From Cylindrotheca closterium (taxonomy: Eukaryota > Bacillariophyta > Bacillariophyceae > Bacillariales > Bacillariaceae), in assembly GCA_933822405.4 (NCBI GenBank), contig CAKOGP040001969.1, positions 1 through 64,000 on the forward strand: 64,000 bases of DNA. Reading direction: 5' to 3'. Made by a program: the position numbers and the translations under genes. The notes under the pieces are model-generated. The model was not told the origin of the DNA. It searched no databases and saw nothing but the letters and a program-made list of their open reading frames with translations. Shown piece after piece: positions 25,169-61,988 of this stretch. Within the stretch, counting starts at the first letter, position 1. Each line of letters starts with the position of its first letter.

Positions 25169-28100
25169 CTAGCCCATGGAACTCCAATCAAAACGAGACT
25201 CTGGAGGGTGTTGAAGTGCCGGTCCACCACGTTGCAAGAAAGACTCCGTAAGGCCTGGCAGGGCTGCTGCGGATGGTGGTGCCTCCTCTTGCTGCTGTGG
25301 TTGTTGTTGATGAAGATTGTTCTTTGAGGACGATTCGGCGGTAGCGTCGGCTGGATCAGAAGAACCAACCAGCTCCGTCAACGACGACGGGCCCCATAAT
25401 CCTCCCAACTCACCAGTCGCCGCACTATTGTTGTCATCAATGGATAGCGCACTCAATCCAAAAAGGGCATCAATCTGGGCATCATCAGCCTTGGACTTGT
25501 CCGCAGGACCAAAGAGGCTGTCGATCAAATCTGAATCCTGCTGCCGCACAGGAAGTGCTGATTCCGGTCCAGGACCAGGTACAAAGAGTGACTTACTGGC
25601 AGCAGCAGCGGGGGCGGCATTTCGACCAGCATTCAATCCATCGCCGTTCATGTAGGAAGAACTTGGCGGGTTCCACAGTCCTTGTGATTGGGGCGCACCA
25701 GGACGTCCGCCAGCAGCATCCATTGCTACGGCGAACTGAGGGAATTGCTGATGCTGTTGCTGTGATGGTGGCGCCATGGGTACTACTGGCTTTTGTGGCA
25801 AGCCAGCAGAAGAAGGAGGAACACCTCTCATTCCACCACCCATCATAAAGTCACCTGGCGGTTGCACTTGACCAATACCACCATCTCTTTGACCATAGAA
25901 TTGAGGTGGTGGACCTTGCAATAACTGCGGAGGCATACCAATGCCTGTAATACTTGGTGGAGGACCCATGAGGAATGGTGGGCCCGCGCTTAATCCTGGA
26001 TGGACAGGACGAGCACCAGTGCGATTCATTGACATCTGTTGGTGGTGAATAGAAGGTGGAATCATCTGGCCGGGTGGCATGGAGTAGGGTGGCTGTGCAG
26101 TCCTCATCACATGTTCTGGGGTAGCCGAATGAGAAGAAGACGCCGACAAAAGCCCATTCGCATCTGGAATCAAGTGTGATGGATGTGCCTGGGAGCCTTC
26201 TGTATCGGCTGGCTGTTGAAGTTGGGCATGAGGATAACTCAAGACATCTCGAACCATCCGAATGGCAATTTCCACGTTTGCTTTGGAACCAGATACTCTG
26301 ATCTGACGGGGAGTTACCGCTTGGTCAATGTCGACACGTGCTCCGCTTTCGTCTTGAATGTTCTTTATGGTCCAGCCACGTTTTCCAATCAGTAGTGGGA
26401 CAAAGCAGGCCTCACATGTCAGCATCTGCTGGAACGCTGGTTTCTGATCCATTTCGGATGAATCGTGAGCAGGTTCGGGCAGGTGGATAGGATTCTCGAC
26501 AGAGTTCACAGCTGGTGTCGCATCGACTAATCTGGCCGGTTCATTGGCAATAGCTCCTGGCTCAGCTTGCTTCTGTACGGTTGCGACTGGAGGTTTCGAT
26601 GGCTCTTGAATTGAGTGCTTTTGAGTAGGAATTGGAGAAGGCTTGTTTGTCTGCGGCAGATGCTCTGTTTGCTGCTGATGCTGCCCAATTGGTGCTTTGT
26701 TAACTAGCTCGTGGACCATCTTTACAGCTTTCTCAACACACTTTCTTTCTCCGCTGACATACACGTTGCGACAATCAGGTGCCTTGGCCTTCTCCTGATC
26801 AATCCAAATTTTTGCCCCACTCTCCTCCATCATGTCACGAATTCTCTGACCACCTTTTCCAATCACCCAGCCTACAAGCGTAGACGACATTTGCATTACA
26901 CACTCGTCGCGATTGGATTTGGATGCATGCGTACCAGAAACAACCTTCAAACGAGTACCCGTCGTATTCGTAGTAGCAATTTTTGGCGGATTCTTCGGTG
27001 GGACGGATGGCGGTGTCTTCATACTCTTTGATGAGATGCTTTCGGTGGTTTTGATTGGCAATTTGTTCTGGAAGACTTCTTCAGCTTCATCAGGTGCATC
27101 TTTCGCTCGAAGACGTTTCAATGCCTTCTTTGCATTCTTTCGAAGTGCTGCTCGGCCTGGAACTCCTTTCAGTGCAAACAATATCTCATCAATACCTTCG
27201 CAATCACCATTTTCGATAAGCTGACATAGCTTCACTTCGATTTCATCAAATTGCGATCCCAACTCCGCAGACTGCTTGGGTGCCAATGATGCCGCTTGAT
27301 CGGATGGAGACGCAGACATTGACGATGCATCCTTCTTTCTAGACTTGGCTTCCTGCTTCTTTTGAAATTTCCTGGCTTGCTCCGCTGCTTTCTTTGCCTT
27401 GGCTTCGTCCTCATGACGTTTCTTTTCTTCTTCCTCTCGTTTGATTGCTTGTTGGCGCTCTTTCTTTTTCTTCTTCTTAGATTTCTTGGACTTGGCAGCC
27501 TCTTCTTCTTCTTCCAACTCGGCTAACAGTGCTTCTGCCGCGGCATCTGCTTTTTGCTTTTCTTGTATGTAGTTTTCAACAAGAGCATGCTCCAGATCCA
27601 TTTCTCTAGCGGCATAATGTAAAGCCGACGTCGTTGGATCCGACATGTGACCACTTGCTGCTTTTGCGGCCATGAGTATACTCGAGTCGGGTTCATAGTC
27701 TTCACCGTCATAATCTTCTAGCTCTTCAATGGTGGTTGTATTCCTTCCGGCATGTCCGGCATGTCCACCATACGGACCCATTTTACCTGATGGGTTGGAA
27801 CTGGACTGCTTAAAGGCCTTGTATATGCTTTTCAGCCTTAGATGGACCAGCTGCTCCATTCTTTTGCTTGGACGATGCCCACATCTAACGCATGGGTCTT
27901 TGGATCCGGAAGCGAGACAGACTAAGCAATAGCTCAGCCGACACGTGTCGCATTCTACCGCAAACTTGGCATCTCTGCTGCACAGAACAATCCCACATCG
28001 TCCACAGGCAGTGGCGCACTCTTCACAAAGCCCACCTCCACAGAATTTACAGCTCAAAAGGGTTGAACACGATGCGCACACGACCTCCCCACAATCCTCG

Positions 28101-28597
28101 CACTGATCCATTTCATCACATCCTCGACAGTAGAACGCATCACACCGATCACAGACTCGGATTTCATGGTTCGCTTGGTATTCGTGACACCAATGACATT
28201 CTTCGCAGACATAGGCTTGACATTCATCACAGTGGACTTGGATGTCGTTGGACATACTATGGCAGTGCAAACAGCCTTCGTCGTCCTCTTCATCTTCAAC
28301 ATCCTCGTCCTCCTCATCTTCAGATATGTAGTCTTCACCCCTTGAATCGTAATCACCATCTGTTATTTTATCGTCGTTGTGATCCAGCAAATCTGGGACA
28401 TCTTCATCGTCGTCGTTTTCATGGTGCACTGAAGTCTTTTTGTCCGGAATAGGAACACATTGATTCATTTTGGGATTGGGGAATCGGCAGTTGTTCATGA
28501 ACGTATTTTGAACAGTTTCGTCTCCTTGTCGTTTTCTCACAGCTCTTATGGCCGCTGATCGGGCAGAGTTGGCTTTATTACGCCGCCGGGGAGGCAT
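25169..28597 (-). CDS. Cys-rich / double KH-domain RNA-binding protein
   Basis: Single 1142-residue ORF. An acidic N-terminus leads to a Cys-rich region at 109-240 with at least ten CxxC pairs (CDECQAYVCEECHWC, CDRCDAFYCRGC, CGRCGIVLC), probably several zinc-binding folds. A Lys/Glu-rich coiled coil follows at about 365-420. Two KH domains come next, KH1 near 563-630 with loop IGKGG and KH2 near 725-790 with loop IGKRG; both GxxG loops are intact, so both should bind single-stranded RNA or DNA. The C-terminal 300 residues are Pro/Gln/Met-rich and disordered. The architecture suggests a cytoplasmic RNA regulator. The ubiquitin-ligase or adaptor role that the Cys-rich part might have cannot be shown from sequence. 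Confidence 0.85.
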   Translation of the reverse strand: MPPRRRNKANSARSAAIRAVRKRQGDETVQNTFMNNCRFPNPKMNQCVPIPDKKTSVHHENDDDEDVPDLLDHNDDKITDGDYDSRGEDYISEDEEDEDVEDEEDDEGCLHCHSMSNDIQVHCDECQAYVCEECHWCHEYQANHEIRVCDRCDAFYCRGCDEMDQCEDCGEVVCASCSTLLSCKFCGGGLCEECATACGRCGIVLCSRDAKFAVECDTCRLSYCLVCLASGSKDPCVRCGHRPSKRMEQLVHLRLKSIYKAFKQSSSNPSGKMGPYGGHAGHAGRNTTTIEELEDYDGEDYEPDSSILMAAKAASGHMSDPTTSALHYAAREMDLEHALVENYIQEKQKADAAAEALLAELEEEEEAAKSKKSKKKKKKERQQAIKREEEEKKRHEDEAKAKKAAEQARKFQKKQEAKSRKKDASSMSASPSDQAASLAPKQSAELGSQFDEIEVKLCQLIENGDCEGIDEILFALKGVPGRAALRKNAKKALKRLRAKDAPDEAEEVFQNKLPIKTTESISSKSMKTPPSVPPKNPPKIATTNTTGTRLKVVSGTHASKSNRDECVMQMSSTLVGWVIGKGGQRIRDMMEESGAKIWIDQEKAKAPDCRNVYVSGERKCVEKAVKMVHELVNKAPIGQHQQQTEHLPQTNKPSPIPTQKHSIQEPSKPPVATVQKQAEPGAIANEPARLVDATPAVNSVENPIHLPEPAHDSSEMDQKPAFQQMLTCEACFVPLLIGKRGWTIKNIQDESGARVDIDQAVTPRQIRVSGSKANVEIAIRMVRDVLSYPHAQLQQPADTEGSQAHPSHLIPDANGLLSASSSHSATPEHVMRTAQPPYSMPPGQMIPPSIHHQQMSMNRTGARPVHPGLSAGPPFLMGPPPSITGIGMPPQLLQGPPPQFYGQRDGGIGQVQPPGDFMMGGGMRGVPPSSAGLPQKPVVPMAPPSQQQHQQFPQFAVAMDAAGGRPGAPQSQGLWNPPSSSYMNGDGLNAGRNAAPAAAASKSLFVPGPGPESALPVRQQDSDLIDSLFGPADKSKADDAQIDALFGLSALSIDDNNSAATGELGGLWGPSSLTELVGSSDPADATAESSSKNNLHQQQPQQQEEAPPSAAALPGLTESFLQRGGPALQHPPESRFDWSSMG

Positions 28598-49050: not shown

Positions 49051-51908
49051 CTAGGTCTTGAATTTGATCAAATACTCTAAGAGTTGGAATCAAGAAAAGT
49101 GAACAGTGAGAATTGGCGGCCAATTTGTTGCGACACCGATAATGTCAGGAACAATAGTTGCTTACCAGGATAGGCTTGCGAATCATGATAGGTAACATAG
49201 ATAGAGGGATTGGCCATGGAATCGCCACTCAAAAGGCCAATGGTAGAATCGTACAACGTATGGGTCTTGGCATCACGAAGGTCTGGAGTCAATGCATTCG
49301 AAACTCCAGGACAGTACTCTCCAACTGCGACTCGACAAGCCATTACATACTGGTATCCTTTGGGATCTTTGACCGCATAGGTTGGACTGGCCGAATAAGA
49401 TGTATCAGGTGCGAAATAAACTCCCTTGCCGTACACTGTCGCATTCTTCCCGCAGAAACTACGATTGAATCCTTGCTGAAGAATCTTACCCATCACTTCC
49501 ACGTTGGTACCATGCCACAGCCAGCATCGTTCCAGCCGTTTGCGTTGGAGACTGGTATCGGCAGCGGGATCGTCACCAAGTTCCCGAGACAGGATCGTTT
49601 GGCGCTTGACCACAAAACTCTGCCACATGGCCAGATTCTCGATTCGCTGAATGCTGGAAATCTTGGCGCTGCGGCCGAGGGAGGACTTGAAAGCCCTTTC
49701 TATTTTCTGGTACTCTGAATCTTCTTTCTTTAGCTCTTGAACTTGGACCACGGAAGGATCGGCAACGTCGTTCCAGTGAGATGGAGCATTCAGAGCATCA
49801 GTGTCACCCACATTCCGCTTTAAAGCCTGAAGATCCTCTGTAGTTGGAACACGAGTGGCCACCATTTGGAACCAGCCCGTGTCAGCAAAAATGTTTGCAT
49901 CATCTTCATCACTGCTGACGGTAGCAGTGTCACTTGTCATTCCAGATACGATAGACCTAGCAACATTTTCGTCATGATGGTACAACTTAGTTCCAAAAGC
50001 CCAATCAGTATCCTTCTTCTGCTTTGAAATCTGGATCACATCTCCGGGGACCAGCACCATTTGCGGCTCATTCTTGATATCGTCCGGTAGCTCTTCGCCA
50101 AACTTGACATTATCGGTTGCGATATCATATAGTTCGGAAGCGGGGAGGAAGGCAAGTGGATCATTCGATCCACCCGTTGAAGAATTTGAAGTATCTACCA
50201 AACGTTGTACCTCGCGAGTAAATCCAGTTTGTTGTTTTGTCTGTGTCATTGAGCTGAAATCCACCAAATAGCCAGACAGTGGCGATACGCTGCCTTTCCA
50301 ACCTTGTTGTTGAAAGGCAGCTTCAAGAACTGCGTTGGCTTCATCCGAATACTTGATCCAGCAGTCCTTTACATCACCGACGACTTGATCTGGATGGTGC
50401 CGATCCATGGCAAAGCTAGTTTCCTTCCAGCACCACTGGACAGTGATAGACTTGGTGTCACGTTTGATTCCTTCTTTTGGCCGATCGCCAATCGACGGGA
50501 GATACACCGCGTTGGCAGTTCTCATACCAACAACAGAATCTCGAAAGGTTTCCAGCTCTTGCTTGATCATTCGCTTTGATCTACGACTCCTCCAATACTT
50601 GACCGCGACGGCAATGAGAAGGATAATCACAACAACTAGCACGGCAATGATCCATACCGGAAGTTTCGGAGGAGGGACGGGATAGGAATCCGATGGGACA
50701 GTAGTCAGCGAGCAACCAAGGGTTGCCCAGCACATTCGAGACAAATCAGCAGTTGCTGCTCCTTCCACGGTCCCAGATTCTCCTACATTTAACCACTCAA
50801 GGTTCCCTCTCTCGTTTCGACGTAGGTGGAGGATCGAGTACAAGGGGTCTTTTCGATCACCCACCTTGGTGAATTGGACACGGCCCGAAGCGCCCTCCAT
50901 GTCGGTTGCCAAGAGTCGCTGGCGGATTTCATCGCCATTACGACGGTCGCTCAAAGGAACTTGATAAATCGCTCGCACAAGAGACGTGACAGCATCGATC
51001 ATTTCGGCTGCAAAGGATGGCATCTGTTCGAGGGATCCGGCTCCATTAAACCTTGCCCAATTGTTGAATTCATTCAGATATCCTTCTGCATTCGGATGTT
51101 GAATTGGACCGACTCCTATATATCCCGGTTGGTCTCGTTTTACAAAAGAGTCTAACTTGACATCGCGTGGTCCCGCCCAAGAGGATGTGCCGACCCAAAC
51201 TGTATCTGGCTGAAAGCCAGTCTCTTCGGCACGTTTCAAAAGGGGATAGGCATGTTGGTTTTGAGCAACCAGAAGTATGATTCTGGAGTTATTGGCTGGG
51301 TCGTCGGTTGGCACCCCTCGCAGTGCAGTATCCAAGGAATCAATATCCAGTGTTCCATCGGCACCCAATCGAATCACATTGGAATATGTGACCTCGCCAC
51401 TAATGTCGTTTCCTTCCCAAAGCCTTCGAAACTCGCTGACATAATCCTTGGCATAGATCGTATCTGTAGACAAAATAGAGACACGCTTCCAACCAAACCA
51501 CTTGAGAGTCTCCACTACAGCCCCGACTTCGCCTCGACTGTCATCTGGAGCGACTAGGCGAGTAAAGTAGGGAAATTCTTCCGCATCACTCAGAATAGAA
51601 GAAGTCGCACTGGGAGACACCATGTTCACCTTCTCTAGACCTGCAATTCGTGCCAAAGACACGGACGCACCAGAGCATCGAGCTCCAACAATCCCATGTA
51701 CGGGAACATCGAAATTTTCGGTGCGTAGCTTCCAGTAGGCTCGTACGGCTGTGGTTTCGTCACATGCAGCGTCCACTACGGTGCTGTTCAAGTTTTGGTA
51801 AGCAGCGTTCTGGTTCTTGATCCTGGTGACCGCAAAATTGAAGATGTCTTCTCCCCAGGAGAACGACGAAGTATCAAAGATACCCGCAATCGATACAGCC
51901 GTAGACAT
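49051..51908 (-). CDS. putative receptor ADP-ribosyltransferase: Venus-flytrap, TM, WWE, SH3-like, PARP
   Basis: Exon 49166-51908 plus a 26-nt terminal exon 49051-49076 (89-bp intron, GTAAGC/CTTAG) give 922 residues from the ATG at 51908. Residues about 5-380 match the ANF-receptor ligand-binding fold (GIFDTSSFSWG, NMVSPSATSS, FPYFTRLVAPDD, LKWFGWKRVSIL). A single membrane helix spans 418-437, followed by SRRSKR. A WWE domain lies at about 487-570 (QWCWKE, WIKY), an SH3-like segment at 620-685 (PGDVIQISKQ, DTGWFQM), and a PARP catalytic domain at 720-922: H799 in WHGTN, Y831 in GKGVYFA, I903 where polymerases have Glu, and QAYPEYLI completed by the last exon. An H-Y-I triad predicts mono-ADP-ribosylation. 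The frame is open for 61 codons upstream without an ATG, and no signal peptide is seen, so the 5' end is uncertain. Confidence 0.82.
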
Positions 51909-52409
51909 TGTGTTTCTGGAACAATGCGGGTTTCCAAGTTCTATTTCTGTGATGTCGTGTTTGTGAGACGATGAATCAAATAGTATTTTCTGAATCAATC
52001 TACAGTACTGGCAGTCTACTTTTTGTTTTCTGGACCTCTCGGAGACGTCTTGGAAGGCCACGGTGGATGCGGCTGTAGCTGTGCGGGACACGGAGTCAAG
52101 AAGAATACGAGGTGCACCTTATTCGCCTGTAATGAAATAAGATTTCTCCTTTCAAATCCTGACGGCAGGTGTCATCTTCCTGTTTGAAACCAGTACGCAG
52201 CCAAAAGCTTGGTTCCGAAGGGAACCAACACAGGGGCGTTTCTGACAAACATACAACCGATTAGCTCGACTAGATGAAAGCGTACATGATTTTTTTCAAA
52301 CTATGATACAGTGAATCTACCATAGATAGCCACGCAGCGTGTTCTATATTTTACTTAATTAAATGTATTATATTCTGGATTGATCATATCTTCAGCTGTA
52401 AGCCGCCGT
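51909..52409. other. convergent/upstream spacer
   Basis: The 51909-52091 part is open in frame with the receptor gene but opens with GTG; an acceptor-like TTTCATTACAG precedes it near 52130. It may be 5' leader or contain an unrecognised upstream exon bearing the signal peptide. The rest (52092-52409) shows no gene. Confidence 0.4.
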
Positions 52410-52850
52410 CTAGTTCTTCATTGTCAAGAAATCCAGGTCTTCAGGGTTCTTGAGCTTCCAAGTTCGGCGACGAGACGACGGCGTGCCATCCTCGCCACTG
52501 ACAGGAGTGCTGCCAAGCCAATCTTGGTTTCGGAGGCTGCGGTCCACACAACCTGGACTTTTCTCCTGAAGTGTCTTCATATTATGCTCGCCATGATATT
52601 TGCTCGATCGCTTTGTTCTAGAGCGGATGGGAGACAATCTTGGACTCGTCTCCGTCATCATCATTTGTGCTAGGAGGTCACTAGAACCACTAGTGGTGAT
52701 GCTGCGAGTGGAGGATGAAATCCACGAGGCACCGTCGTCATAGTGTTCGGAATGCGTACTCTCATCAACAGCACTGTATCTTTTGTTGAAGTCTCGGACC
52801 TTGCGGTAGTGAGCAAGTGCTTCTTTGTTGTTGCTGGGAACTTGGGACAT
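52410..52850 (-). CDS. small hypothetical protein, Ser/Arg-rich
   Basis: 146 residues from the ATG at 52850. Not recognised. A short helical start (NKEALAHYRKVRDFNKRYSA) is followed by a Ser/Thr-rich region with SPRLSPIRSRTKRSS and a C-terminal TPSSRRRTWKLKNPEDLDF. There is no membrane segment. The clustered Ser-Pro and Arg-x-x-Ser sites suggest a phosphorylated regulatory protein, which is inference. Confidence 0.5.
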   Translation of the reverse strand: MSQVPSNNKEALAHYRKVRDFNKRYSAVDESTHSEHYDDGASWISSSTRSITTSGSSDLLAQMMMTETSPRLSPIRSRTKRSSKYHGEHNMKTLQEKSPGCVDRSLRNQDWLGSTPVSGEDGTPSSRRRTWKLKNPEDLDFLTMKN

Positions 52851-56554: not shown

Positions 56555-58388
56555 ATGACTTTCATGCGATCTACTACACTTGCTCTCTGGCTTGCAACCA
56601 TCACTTCTGCTGCCGCTATCAGCACACCCATTCGAGATTTATCTCAAGAAACGATCACCGAATCCCAATGCGACTGGCCAAACTTCCAAGAAGATGATGA
56701 TCTCAATGGTGCCATGGTTCTCTACAAAGGTCACAAGCTTGCCGAGTGGAGAAACCCAAACGGGCAGAACAATGACTGGTTTGGCCAAAACTACGTCGAC
56801 GGAACAACCCAACATGCTCAGTATTCTGTCACCAAAACATGGGTCTCGGTATTGGTTGGTATGTTGTACCGTGACGGTTTCATGGACTGGGAAACTGAAC
56901 ACCCCGACAAGATCACTCTTGGTGAGATCTTTCCGGATAAGGTCTGGGAAGATATCTGGGACGTTCCATTCTTAATCAGTGGTAAGTGGCACTATCTACG
57001 AAAACTCCATCTTTATTGATTCGTTCGGCAACAGTGTCTAACAAACATTGTTTGCTCCCTTTTTCATCTCAGGAGGATCAAAGGTTCCCGAGCTCAAGGC
57101 CATCACTCTTGGACAGCTCATGTCCATGAGGACCGGATACGCTGAAAACGGAATCAGCTCTCCCTTCGATAGTACCTTGGTCCGCGACTTGGATCGCCTC
57201 GTCGCTTGGTGGCACCCATTCTACCGCACCGGAAAGATCGAGTCCCAAACATGCTTCGAATGTGGTGACTACTTGTCGTCTTCTGGTATTGTCAATTACA
57301 TCATCAAGGAGAAGACCAAGACCGATGCCAACCCAAGAGGATGGGACCCCCTTGACTATGCCCGTCAAACCTCCGAATCATTGCCAGATGGCAACGTCGG
57401 ACTCTTCGAGGCCCTTGGTATGGAAGAAGGATCCTACACCTGGGATCGTGATCGTGATGACGTAGCTCGCGGTGCATTCGGTCTTTGGGCTGATCTCGAG
57501 GACATGGCCAAGTTCGGTCAGCTATTGTTGCAAGGAGGAACCGTCATGTTCGATGGCGTCGTCCGCGAGATCATTCCATCCTACTACTTCGAAGAGATGA
57601 CCAAGACCCAATCTCGAATGATCGGTATGGACCTTCCCTATGGCTGGCAAGTGTGGAACTGGGGCGAAGATGACGATGGTGATAGCGGCTTCTGTGCTGA
57701 AGGTCTCGGATGGCAATCCATCTGTGTATTCCCCAAGCACGATACTGTTGTCGCCATCCAGGCTCCAGTGTCATTTGGCGTAGAAACCTTTGCTGCGAAT
57801 CTCGAATTCCGCAATGATGCCATCAAGGCTATTCGTGATGGAATTGTGTGTGGGCCAACAGCTGCACCAAATACACCAGGAGGATCGTCCCCAACAAGCC
57901 CTCCTGTGTCATCGACCACTGCGCCTTCCGCTGGAGACAACTTGGTTGGGGACACAATCGAAGACCCAATTGACGGAAGCGGCTCTAACAACGGGGAAGA
58001 TCCCAACAATGTAAATGAAGATCTTGGTGGCACTAACGAAGACATTGAGGACACTGATCGCGAAAACGAGTCCGAGCAAGTCTTGATTGGATCCGCCAAC
58101 GGCGAGGATGATGCTGATGCTCCAGTCGGTATGATCATCGGTCTGGCCCTTTTGGCTGCTCTCATGTGTGTTCTATGTGCTTTGTTCTTCTGCTCCAAGC
58201 GCAGCAAGAAAGACCAAGGCGCCCCAAGATCTGTGGATTGCAAAGTTGTTCCCGCTGGATCCCAAGATGATGAGCTGAACAAAATGTATGAAGCCAAGCT
58301 GAATGCCGATGACCTCAGCGTTGACACCGATGACGAAAGCGGTGAAATCGCTTATGCTGTTGCCGATATTGAGCAACGATCATACTAA
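56555..58388 (+). CDS. membrane-anchored beta-lactamase-like serine hydrolase A
   Basis: Exons 56555-56981 and 57073-58388 (91-bp intron, phase 1) give 580 residues. A signal peptide covers about 1-22 (TTLALWLATITSAAA). The beta-lactamase/NylB-like fold follows, with the nucleophile motif SVTK (S91, K94) in HAQYSVTKTW, then MRTGYAENG, the Y-T-W segment in EEGSYTWDRD, GLWADLEDMAKFGQLLLQGG and YGWQVWNWG with GLGWQSICVFP. After the fold comes a Thr/Pro then acidic stalk, a membrane helix near 505-525 (GMIIGLALLAALMCVLCALFF) and a short basic/acidic cytosolic tail. It is thus a surface or endomembrane ectoenzyme. Family members hydrolyse esters, amides or D-peptides; the substrate is unknown. First of three tandem copies. 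Confidence 0.85.
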
Positions 58389-60196: not shown

Positions 60197-61988
60197 ATGA
60201 CTCTGATGCGTTCCACTACACTTGCTCTATGGCTGGCTGGCATTGCCTCAGTAGTAGCCATCAATACTCCAATCAGAGACTTGTCTATAGATCCTGTCGA
60301 AGATTCCCATTGTAATTGGCCTACCTTCCAAGAAGACGATGATCTCGATGGTGTCATGGTTCTATACCGAGGCAACAAGCTTGCCGAGTGGAGAAACCCC
60401 AACAGCGAAAGCACCGATTGGCTTCAATTGAACTATGTTGAAGGGACCACACAACATGCTCAGTTCTCAGTGACAAAGACTTGGATTTCAGTGTTGATCG
60501 GAATGTTGTACCGTGATGGATTCTTGGAGTGGGAAACTGAGCATCCTGATAAGCTTACTTTGGGAGACATCTTTCCTGAAAAGATCTGGGATGATATCTG
60601 GGACATTCCATTCTTCTTTAGTGGTAGGTTACGATTGTTGGAATGGCATTGTGTGCTTTGCATCAGTACCTTTGTCTGACACTTGTTTGCAACATTTTAC
60701 AGGAGGATCTAAAGTTCCCGAGCTCAAAGCTATCAAATTGGGCGAGATTATGTCCATGAGAACAGGATACGCAGAAAACGGAATCAGTTCTCCCTTCGAT
60801 AGCACATTGGTCCGCGATCTGGATCGTCTCGTTGCTTGGTGGCACCCTCTTTACCGCAGCGGAGTGATTGATTCCCAAACATGCTTCAACTGCGGGAGCT
60901 ATCTAGCAACTGCTGGCATTGTAAATTATGTTATCAAGGAGAAGACAAAGACTGATACAAATCCTACCGGGTGGGATCCATTAGCTTATGCCCGTCAGAC
61001 ATCCGCTACCCTACCAGGTGGAAATCTTGGCCTCTTTGAAGCTCTTGGTATGGAAGAAGGTTCCTACACGTGGGATCGTGACGAAGAAGGGGTCGCTCGA
61101 GGTGCATTTGGTCTTTGGGCAGACCTTGAAGACATGGCCAAGTTTGGACAGCTTTTGCTGCAAGGCGGAACCGTCATGTTCGACGGAGTAGCTCGCGAGG
61201 TTGTTCCCTCATACTACTTTGAAGAAATGACCAAGACCCAATCTCGAATTGTCGGTGTTGATTTACCATACGGATGGCAAGTATGGAACTGGGGTGCAGA
61301 CGATAATGGTGACAGCGGGTTCTGCGCAGAAGGTCTCGGCTGGCAGTCCATTTGCGTATTCCCAAATCAAGAGACTGTGGTGGCCATTCAAGCTCCAGTG
61401 TCGTTTGGTGTCGAGACTTTTGCAGCTAATATTGGAATCCGCAATGATGCCATCAAAGCAATCCGTGATGGTATTGAATGCAGCCCAACAGCGGCACCAA
61501 GCTCGCCATCTCTTCCTATCACCACTTTGCCGCCTCCCACAGGAGACAACATGGTTGGTAACAGACCCAGAGATCCTATCGATGGAGGGAATTTCATTGG
61601 CGAGAATGACAATGAAGATGTCAATAACGGGTTTACCGAGGACATCAACCGTAGCGACGAGTCGGAGATCGTCGTTGGCGCATCAAACGAGAATGACGAT
61701 GACACGCCAGTTGGTTTGATCATCCTTTTTGTGTTGCTTTCTGTCATGGTTTGCATCATGATGACTTTATTTTTTCGATCGAAGCGCAATAATGCGACAA
61801 AGGATGCCCCAAGAAGGTCGACAGAAGCCATGTTCAAAGTTGCACCACACGGATACGATGATGATTTGAACAAAGTGTATGATGTCTCTCTTGATGATGA
61901 AGACAGCGTCGATACTGAGGAAAGCGATGTAGACGTAGTGACATTCATTGTTGCTGAAGATATCGAAGGGCGATTGGCAGCTCCCTAG
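60197..61988 (+). CDS. membrane-anchored beta-lactamase-like serine hydrolase B
   Basis: Exons 60197-60623 and 60703-61988 (79-bp intron with a GTAGGT donor, same phase and position as copy A) give 570 residues. Exon 1 has exactly the same length as in A. Same plan: signal peptide, SVTK nucleophile motif in HAQFSVTKTW, MRTGYAENG, GSYTWDRD, GLWADLEDMAKFGQLLLQGG, an acidic stalk, a membrane helix (GLIILFVLLSVMVCIMMTLFF) and an acidic tail. It is clearly diverged from A and C throughout, including the intron, so it is the older duplicate. Confidence 0.85.

What the first reader, a model, noticed from the sequence alone, without database searches (positions are those of the whole stretch)
49051..51908. 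A putative single-pass receptor carrying its own ADP-ribosyltransferase
One reading frame joins an extracellular-type ANF-receptor (Venus-flytrap) domain, one membrane helix, a WWE domain, an SH3-like segment and a PARP catalytic domain with H799, Y831 and I903. Known PARPs are nuclear, cytosolic or tail-anchored, and known Venus-flytrap receptors signal through channels, G proteins, kinases or cyclases. A ligand-gated ADP-ribosyltransferase in one polypeptide is, to my knowledge, not described. The domain order is read directly from sequence; ligand gating is inference. The H-Y-I triad predicts mono-ADP-ribosylation, and the WWE could bind ADP-ribose chains.
Basis: partly seen in the sequence, partly recalled or inferred. 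Interest (0 to 1): 0.88.

Follow-up and report, generated by a model that had tools for sequence, protein, structure and literature searches.

The report
A diatom receptor that ADP-ribosylates
A diatom gene fuses a glutamate-receptor-like sensor, one membrane helix and an ADP-ribosyltransferase enzyme in a single protein, and it belongs to a family that puts the same enzyme half behind many different sensors, which looks like an undescribed class of cell receptor.

Summary

It is not a one-off fusion. Relatives in diatoms, Aureococcus and other sources carry the same TM-WWE-PARP half behind at least six ectodomain classes (Venus flytrap, NMT1/CUB, PstS-like, Cache, Bmp, LRR). A tree of the catalytic region needs 16 sensor changes. 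Some relatives are complete transcriptome ORFs. Four of five glutamate-receptor backbone-contact letters are kept, suggesting an amino-acid-like ligand.

Most likely it is a single-pass, ligand-controlled mono-ADP-ribosyltransferase. Not shown: ligand, activity, gating, orientation. This protein and its five closest relatives lack a recognisable signal peptide, and the 'SH3-like' segment is not confirmed. Ten full-text searches listed no paper describing such receptors.

The parts
49166..51908 (-). exon 1 of the receptor-PARP gene (start codon 51908-51906)
   Evidence: (spliced product equals P0001)
49077..49165 (-). 89-nt intron, GT...AG
49051..49076 (-). exon 2: last residues of the PARP fold and stop codon
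50679..51908 (-). Venus-flytrap ectodomain, residues 1-410 (ANF_receptor profile match 23-363; first strand at residue 5)
51672..51674 (-). Ser79, aligned with a backbone-contact Ser of metabotropic glutamate receptors (role recalled); S in 63 of 63 rows with a letter, of 74 aligned
51603..51605 (-). Thr102, aligned with a ligand-contact Thr of metabotropic glutamate receptors (role recalled)
51543..51545 (-). Asp122, aligned with a ligand-contact Asp (role recalled)
51453..51455 (-). Tyr152, aligned with a ligand-contact Tyr (role recalled)
50601..50657 (-). single membrane helix, residues 418-436; basic residues follow on the C-terminal side
50520..50600 (-). juxtamembrane stretch (residues 437-463): helix to 458 continuing the membrane helix, with the FRDSVVGMR motif (455-463)
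50202..50369 (-). WWE domain, residues 514-569
49051..49796 (-). PARP catalytic domain, residues 705-922 (interrupted by the intron)
   Evidence: fold of the close relative P0004
49512..49514 (-). catalytic His799
49416..49418 (-). catalytic Tyr831
49200..49202 (-). Ile903 at the position that is Glu in chain-forming PARPs (role recalled)

Best explanation
This is a single-pass membrane receptor whose output is mono-ADP-ribosylation. A Venus-flytrap domain of the metabotropic-glutamate type, outside the cell or in a membrane lumen, binds a small, probably amino-acid-like ligand. As a dimer it passes the change through a continuous membrane/juxtamembrane helix to a cytosolic WWE-PARP half, which then transfers single ADP-ribose units from NAD+ to membrane-near proteins. 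SHOWN here: one gene; domain content and order; fold of both halves (prediction); intact catalytic His and Tyr; one membrane helix; a family with exchangeable sensors and a constant effector half. INFERRED: orientation, ligand class, dimerisation, gating, mono- rather than poly-transfer, substrates.
Against: No recognisable signal peptide in this protein or its five closest relatives, which all start with MS within 13 residues of the first flytrap strand. The fifth pocket residue (Asp in mGluR7) is Ser242. Relatives keep Thr102 in only 43 of 61, Asp122 in 38 of 64 and Tyr152 in 39 of 66 with a letter, so ligands probably differ or the clamp is not general. The FRxSVVGMR-type motif is found in 84 of 196 proteins, so the juxtamembrane link is not uniform. 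No activity, ligand or localisation data. Inter-domain geometry of the model is uncertain (pTM 0.55).
Confidence: 0.7

Rival explanations
1. A membrane-tethered mono-ADP-ribosyltransferase that is not ligand-gated: the flytrap only places the enzyme or captures solutes, and activity is constitutive or controlled from inside (for example through WWE).
For: No gating data exist. Flytrap pocket residues vary in the family. WWE is in 44 of 46 family members scanned and could give control from inside.
Against: Repeated exchange of sensor-type ectodomains (Venus flytrap, Cache, Bmp, PstS-like, LRR, NMT1/CUB) on one effector half is the usual signature of sensing; a mere anchor would not need them.
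Confidence: 0.15
2. The output is NAD+ consumption (hydrolysis, stress or death signalling) rather than protein ADP-ribosylation.
For: Another protein joins a flytrap to a TIR domain (P0194), and TIR domains can cleave NAD+ (stated in a passage of PMC8195603).
Against: The catalytic domain is closest to PARP15/14/10, known mono-transferases (activity recalled), and WWE is a reader of ADP-ribose on proteins (recalled).
Confidence: 0.1
3. In this clade the flytrap faces the cytosol, so the protein is an internal sensor anchored to a membrane.
For: 0 of 6 members of the window's clade have a hydrophobic stretch before the flytrap, while 35 of 60 flytrap relatives with a complete N-terminus pass the same crude threshold (not all 60 carry PARP, and this is no trained predictor).
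Against: Basic residues sit on the C-terminal side of the helix. Ectodomain Cys49/Cys78 and Cys393/Cys399 are conserved (56 of 61, 57 of 63, 71 of 74, 70 of 74 rows with a letter). Two flytrap loci of the same genome followed by kinase and guanylate cyclase exons also start with MS, so signal-less flytrap receptors, or separate signal exons, may be normal here; a reverse signal-anchor, as in neuregulin-1 (recalled), would suffice.
Confidence: 0.12
4. Artefact: two neighbouring genes fused by assembly or annotation.
For: The window alone cannot exclude it; no RNA reads of this gene were available here.
Against: Uninterrupted 943-codon ORF, no N, the same set of domains in several genera, transcriptomes and metagenome contigs.
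Confidence: 0.01

Closest known systems
PARP15/PARP14/PARP10/PARP12 (clade 3 mono-ADP-ribosyltransferases)
   Different: Those are not receptors; here a membrane helix and a sensor ectodomain precede WWE-PARP
Natriuretic-peptide-type receptor guanylate cyclases
   Same: Flytrap ectodomain, one membrane helix, cytosolic enzyme; the diatom itself has two loci with flytrap and helix followed by kinase and guanylate cyclase exons (L025, L026)
   Different: Output enzyme is an ADP-ribosyltransferase, with no kinase-like or cyclase domain
Class C GPCRs (metabotropic glutamate, calcium-sensing)
   Same: Ectodomain fold and four of five backbone-contact letters (contact roles recalled)
   Different: One helix instead of seven; no cysteine-rich domain in the Pfam scan; enzymatic output
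Membrane PARPs: PARP16; sponge and rhizarian PARPs with a transmembrane segment (PMC4245714, passages read)
   Same: PARP catalytic domain with a membrane helix
   Different: PARP16 is tail-anchored with no sensor; in the passages read the sponge and rhizarian proteins are mentioned only as TM plus PARP or with H_lectin, not as receptors
Bacterial modular sensors (histidine kinases, chemoreceptors; recalled)
   Same: Interchangeable Cache, periplasmic-binding-protein and Bmp-type ectodomains on a fixed effector half
   Different: Eukaryotic, ADP-ribosyltransferase output

Membership tests
PARP / diphtheria-toxin-like ADP-ribosyltransferase (PF00644), clade 3 type | PARP catalytic fold over its full length | tested here: met
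PARP / diphtheria-toxin-like ADP-ribosyltransferase (PF00644), clade 3 type | Catalytic His and Tyr | tested here: met
   H799, Y831; 164 of 164 and 154 of 156 in relatives with a letter
PARP / diphtheria-toxin-like ADP-ribosyltransferase (PF00644), clade 3 type | Hydrophobic residue in place of the chain-forming Glu (mono-transfer) | tested here: met
   I903; I/L/M/V in 146 of 148 with a letter, Glu in none. That this means mono-transfer is recalled knowledge
PARP / diphtheria-toxin-like ADP-ribosyltransferase (PF00644), clade 3 type | NAD+-dependent transfer activity | not testable with these tools
   Needs an assay
WWE-containing PARPs | WWE domain above curated cut-off | tested here: met
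   40.9 bits, cut-off 21.1; WWE in 44 of 46 relatives scanned at E<=0.1
WWE-containing PARPs | ADP-ribose-binding residues of WWE | not tested
   No residue-level comparison was made
Class C / ANF-type Venus-flytrap ligand-binding domain | Bilobed flytrap fold | tested here: met
   ANF_receptor E 3.7e-41; mGluR/CaSR fold matches
Class C / ANF-type Venus-flytrap ligand-binding domain | Amino-acid backbone clamp of mGluRs | tested here: inconclusive
   S79, T102, D122, Y152 kept; Asp replaced by S242. Contact roles recalled
Single-pass enzyme-linked receptor | One membrane helix between sensor and enzyme | tested here: met
   One helix 418-436
Single-pass enzyme-linked receptor | Sensor outside, enzyme inside | tested here: inconclusive
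   Basic flank on the C-terminal side, but no recognisable signal peptide in this clade
Single-pass enzyme-linked receptor | Ligand-dependent enzyme activity | not testable with these tools
   Needs an assay
Class C GPCR | Seven-helix 7tm_3 domain | tested here: not met
   No 7tm_3 match at E<=0.01 in the protein, while four other flytrap proteins of the genome have it
Receptor guanylate cyclase | Guanylate cyclase domain | tested here: not met
   None at E<=0.01; present at L025 and L026

The most novel reading that the evidence does not exclude
Receptor ADP-ribosyltransferases are an undescribed class of enzyme-linked receptor, on a par with receptor kinases and receptor guanylate cyclases. 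They are spread through pennate diatoms, pelagophytes and other protists, with at least six interchangeable ectodomain classes on one membrane-WWE-ART effector half, and they write an external chemical signal straight into mono-ADP-ribosylation.
Probability: 0.68. Interest if true: 0.93.

Novelty: new variant of a known kind. Interest (0 to 1): 0.86.

Why it matters
Known single-pass receptors signal through kinases, phosphatases, cyclases or adaptors (recalled). A receptor that carries its own ADP-ribosyltransferase would be a new output for outside signals and would tie sensing to NAD+. [quoted passage not shown] Here one diatom genome has five PARP-profile loci, two of them receptor-type. 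The modular sensors make ligand discovery tractable, and the amino-acid-type pocket gives a first ligand guess.

Tried and rejected
Assembly or annotation fusion: rejected, because the same set of domains recurs in other genera, transcriptomes and independent contigs. One-off fusion: rejected for the same reason. Poly-ADP-ribose polymerase: not favoured (no Glu at the third triad position).

Signal peptide in an upstream exon: looked for within 1.2 kb; neither shown nor excluded. Two candidates exist. A weakly hydrophobic 26-codon ORF at 52252 (best 10-residue mean 1.6) could be spliced in frame by eye. A more hydrophobic 31-codon ORF at 52765 (2.52) overlaps the neighbouring ORF 52410-52850 in another frame. 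The frame before the start codon is open but has no ATG. L025 and L026 also have upstream hydrophobic ORFs (up to 2.06 and 2.46), so a signal exon is not excluded there either.

SH3-like segment: not confirmed; it was not folded alone. The single-domain rows cover residues 312-531 of P0004, so the WWE and beta-rich parts were barely tested by fold.

Trees: 168 of 196 proteins matched the catalytic query; only those to which I gave an ectodomain label and with 200 or more residues went in. First tree (quick): 106 rows, seven labels, 23 changes; it held six rows with extreme branches (P0176, P0178, P0184, P0186, P0187, P0188) and five long ones. Second: 93 rows, 18 changes; it dropped those eleven and P0050 and P0051 and merged two flytrap labels. 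Five of its labels (P0009, P0016, P0017, P0018, P0033) came from similarity or name and one (P0061) from neighbours. Third: 87 rows, Pfam-based labels only, without those six as well, 16 changes; its bootstrap had not settled. In the same call BLAST agreed with all six dropped labels. LRR and Bmp are so few (4 and 2 rows) that their clustering is hardly better than shuffled labels (25 and 500 of 500 shuffles as low). Labels come from precomputed Pfam columns, checked by fresh scans of 14 proteins. The classes are not all deeply unrelated: flytrap and Bmp, and NMT1 and PstS-like, share broad binding-protein folds (recalled); BLAST merely finds no match between classes.

Literature: ten searches of open-licence PubMed Central papers. 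Lists were capped (for example 20 of 118, 15 of 67, 10 of 24,272). No listed title or abstract start describes a receptor PARP. Subscription papers and bioRxiv preprints are mostly not held. Passages were read in PMC4245714, PMC2964712, PMC7335047, PMC8027222 and PMC8195603; none was read whole.

Full report
WHAT IS THERE. The window lies on a 249,451-base contig of a 47.6-Mb assembly. The gene product is identical to deposited Cylindrotheca closterium protein P0001, whose contig has the same length, so the genome is taken to be that diatom's. The gene is on the minus strand, 51908..49166 plus 49076..49051, with an 89-nt intron. The product is 922 aa with ANF_receptor 23-363, one helix 418-436, WWE 514-569 and PARP 731-922. 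G+C is even along the gene (0.47-0.50), with no sign of a join.

CATALYSIS. 168 of 196 proteins held matched the catalytic query. His is present in all 164 with a letter, Tyr in 154 of 156, and the third position is I 107, L 14, M 13, V 12, R 1 and T 1 of 148 with a letter; none has Glu. By general knowledge this predicts mono-ADP-ribosylation. Activity was not testable.

LIGAND SITE. In the HMMER alignment to mGluR7, S79, T102, D122 and Y152 face the same letters, and an mGluR7 Asp faces S242. That these residues hold the amino-acid backbone of glutamate is recalled, not from a call. Among the 74 aligned proteins (chosen from 196): S79 is Ser in 63 of 63 with a letter; T102 Thr 43 of 61, Asn 14; D122 Asp 38 of 64, Asn 14; Y152 Tyr 39 and Phe 26 of 66; position 242 Ser 40 and Asp 14 of 71. 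I infer an amino-acid-like ligand for this protein and different ligands across the family.

A FAMILY WITH EXCHANGEABLE SENSORS. Searching with the membrane-WWE-PARP half found 201 proteins (120 listed); the same half of a relative with another ectodomain found 178 (120 listed); the flytrap half found 54. In each search only the roughly 8,000 candidates sharing most words were scored. Named holders of the flytrap-WWE-PARP set are C. closterium, C. fusiformis, Bacillariaceae sp., Seminavis robusta, Nitzschia inconspicua, Fragilaria crotonensis and Stauroneis constricta. Aureococcus anophagefferens has WWE-PARP or PARP with CUB or NMT1 domains. Other hits are EukProt entries without a visible species name; some look like choanoflagellate data by naming style (recalled, not tested). 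Fresh Pfam scans find other ectodomains before PARP above cut-off: CUB (P0011, P0023; NMT1 in P0023 is below its cut-off), PBP_like_2 (P0063), Cache (P0132), Bmp (P0111, P0120), LRR (P0108, P0133, P0159; a hormone-receptor domain in the last two is below cut-off). P0009's CUB is weak and its NMT1_2 below cut-off, but its ectodomain is 75% identical to P0011's. On a tree of the catalytic region with Pfam-based labels (87 rows: VFT 52, NMT/CUB 16, Cache 10, LRR 4, PstS 3, Bmp 2) at least 16 label changes are needed; well-supported branches alone force 12 for VFT, 5 for NMT/CUB, 3 for Cache, 3 for LRR, 2 for Bmp and 1 for PstS. Ectodomains of different classes show no BLAST match at E 1e-5, although some share broad binding-protein folds (recalled). 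So different sensors were attached to, or exchanged on, one effector half many times. This is the strongest reason to read the protein as a receptor.

THE SAME GENOME AS CONTROL. The own genome has nine PF01094 matches. Besides the window gene, four are class C GPCRs in two tandem pairs (L023, L024), and two are flytrap-TM frames followed by frames with kinase and guanylate cyclase domains (L025, L026), the natriuretic-receptor layout; that these exons are joined was read from order and strand, not from transcripts. The other two (C223, C517) were not classified. The genome has five PF00644 loci: the window gene; C257, which holds the NMT1/CUB-type receptor P0011 (contig length 425,459); a WGR/WWE/PARP_reg protein (L029); an ankyrin-WGR-PARP protein (L030); and a short PARP with a C-terminal hydrophobic stretch (L032).

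TOPOLOGY PROBLEM. 35 of 60 flytrap relatives with a complete N-terminus pass a crude hydrophobic threshold (11-residue mean >= 2.0); the window protein and its five nearest relatives do not, and all six begin MS within 13 residues of the first strand. P0002, from a transcriptome, is listed as a complete ORF with that start. The flytrap frames of L025 and L026 also begin MS. An upstream signal exon is not excluded: hydrophobic short ORFs lie upstream in all three loci. Lys/Arg prefer the C-terminal side of the helix in 173 of 179 proteins (218 before, 1050 after), and the ectodomain cysteines are conserved. I therefore favour N-terminus out, by the helix acting as a reverse signal-anchor, or by an unseen exon. 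This is inference.

NOVELTY. [quoted passage not shown] PMC4245714 (passages) adds Thalassiosira oceanica with at least two, and mentions transmembrane PARPs in a sponge and in Rhizaria. The main text of the Seminavis genome paper PMC7335047 has no 'parp' or 'adp-ribos'; that of the pheromone paper PMC8027222 has no 'adp-ribos' or 'polymerase'. No search (capped lists) listed a paper on receptor PARPs. Public databases do carry automatic names that join the domains (for example P0049), so the sequences are public but, as far as searched, undescribed.

VERDICT. Gene and architecture: near certain. Receptor with ADP-ribosyltransferase output: likely (0.7). Ligand gating, mono-transfer, orientation and substrates remain to be shown.

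Noticed in passing
L025 and L026 (own genome C246:353000-359000 and C535:90000-96500): Two loci of natriuretic-receptor layout: flytrap and one helix, then frames with kinase and guanylate cyclase domains. Their flytrap frames start with MS and no signal peptide in the same frame.
   Followed up: partly
L023 and L024 (own genome C124:76000-84900 and C16:57000-66000): Four class C GPCR genes (flytrap plus 7tm_3) in two tandem pairs.
   Followed up: partly
P0194 (relative, 842 aa): A flytrap domain followed by a TIR domain, another possibly NAD+-using effector behind the same type of sensor.
   Followed up: no
L031 (own genome C257:327500-334500) and P0011: Second receptor-type PARP of this diatom, with an NMT1/CUB-like ectodomain of about 940 residues.
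   Followed up: partly
L030 (own genome C223:176500-185500): 2532-aa open frame with many ankyrin repeats, WGR, PARP_reg and PARP domains.
   Followed up: no
window 25169-28597, minus strand: 1142-aa multi-KH-domain protein; one weak match is to a KH profile named after PARP14, below its cut-off.
   Followed up: no
window 57120-58388 and 60516-61988, plus strand: Two nearby ORFs with weak beta-lactamase-family matches below the cut-off, possibly tandem copies.
   Followed up: no
P0118 (MMETSP0472, labelled Tiarina fusus): A ciliate-labelled transcriptome entry matches the diatom family at 50% identity over 47% of the query; algal prey contamination is likely but untested.
   Followed up: no
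P0079, P0086, P0092, P0117, P0125 (Aureococcus anophagefferens): Proteins of this family are deposited under the name platelet-activating factor acetyltransferase, which looks like a misannotation.
   Followed up: no
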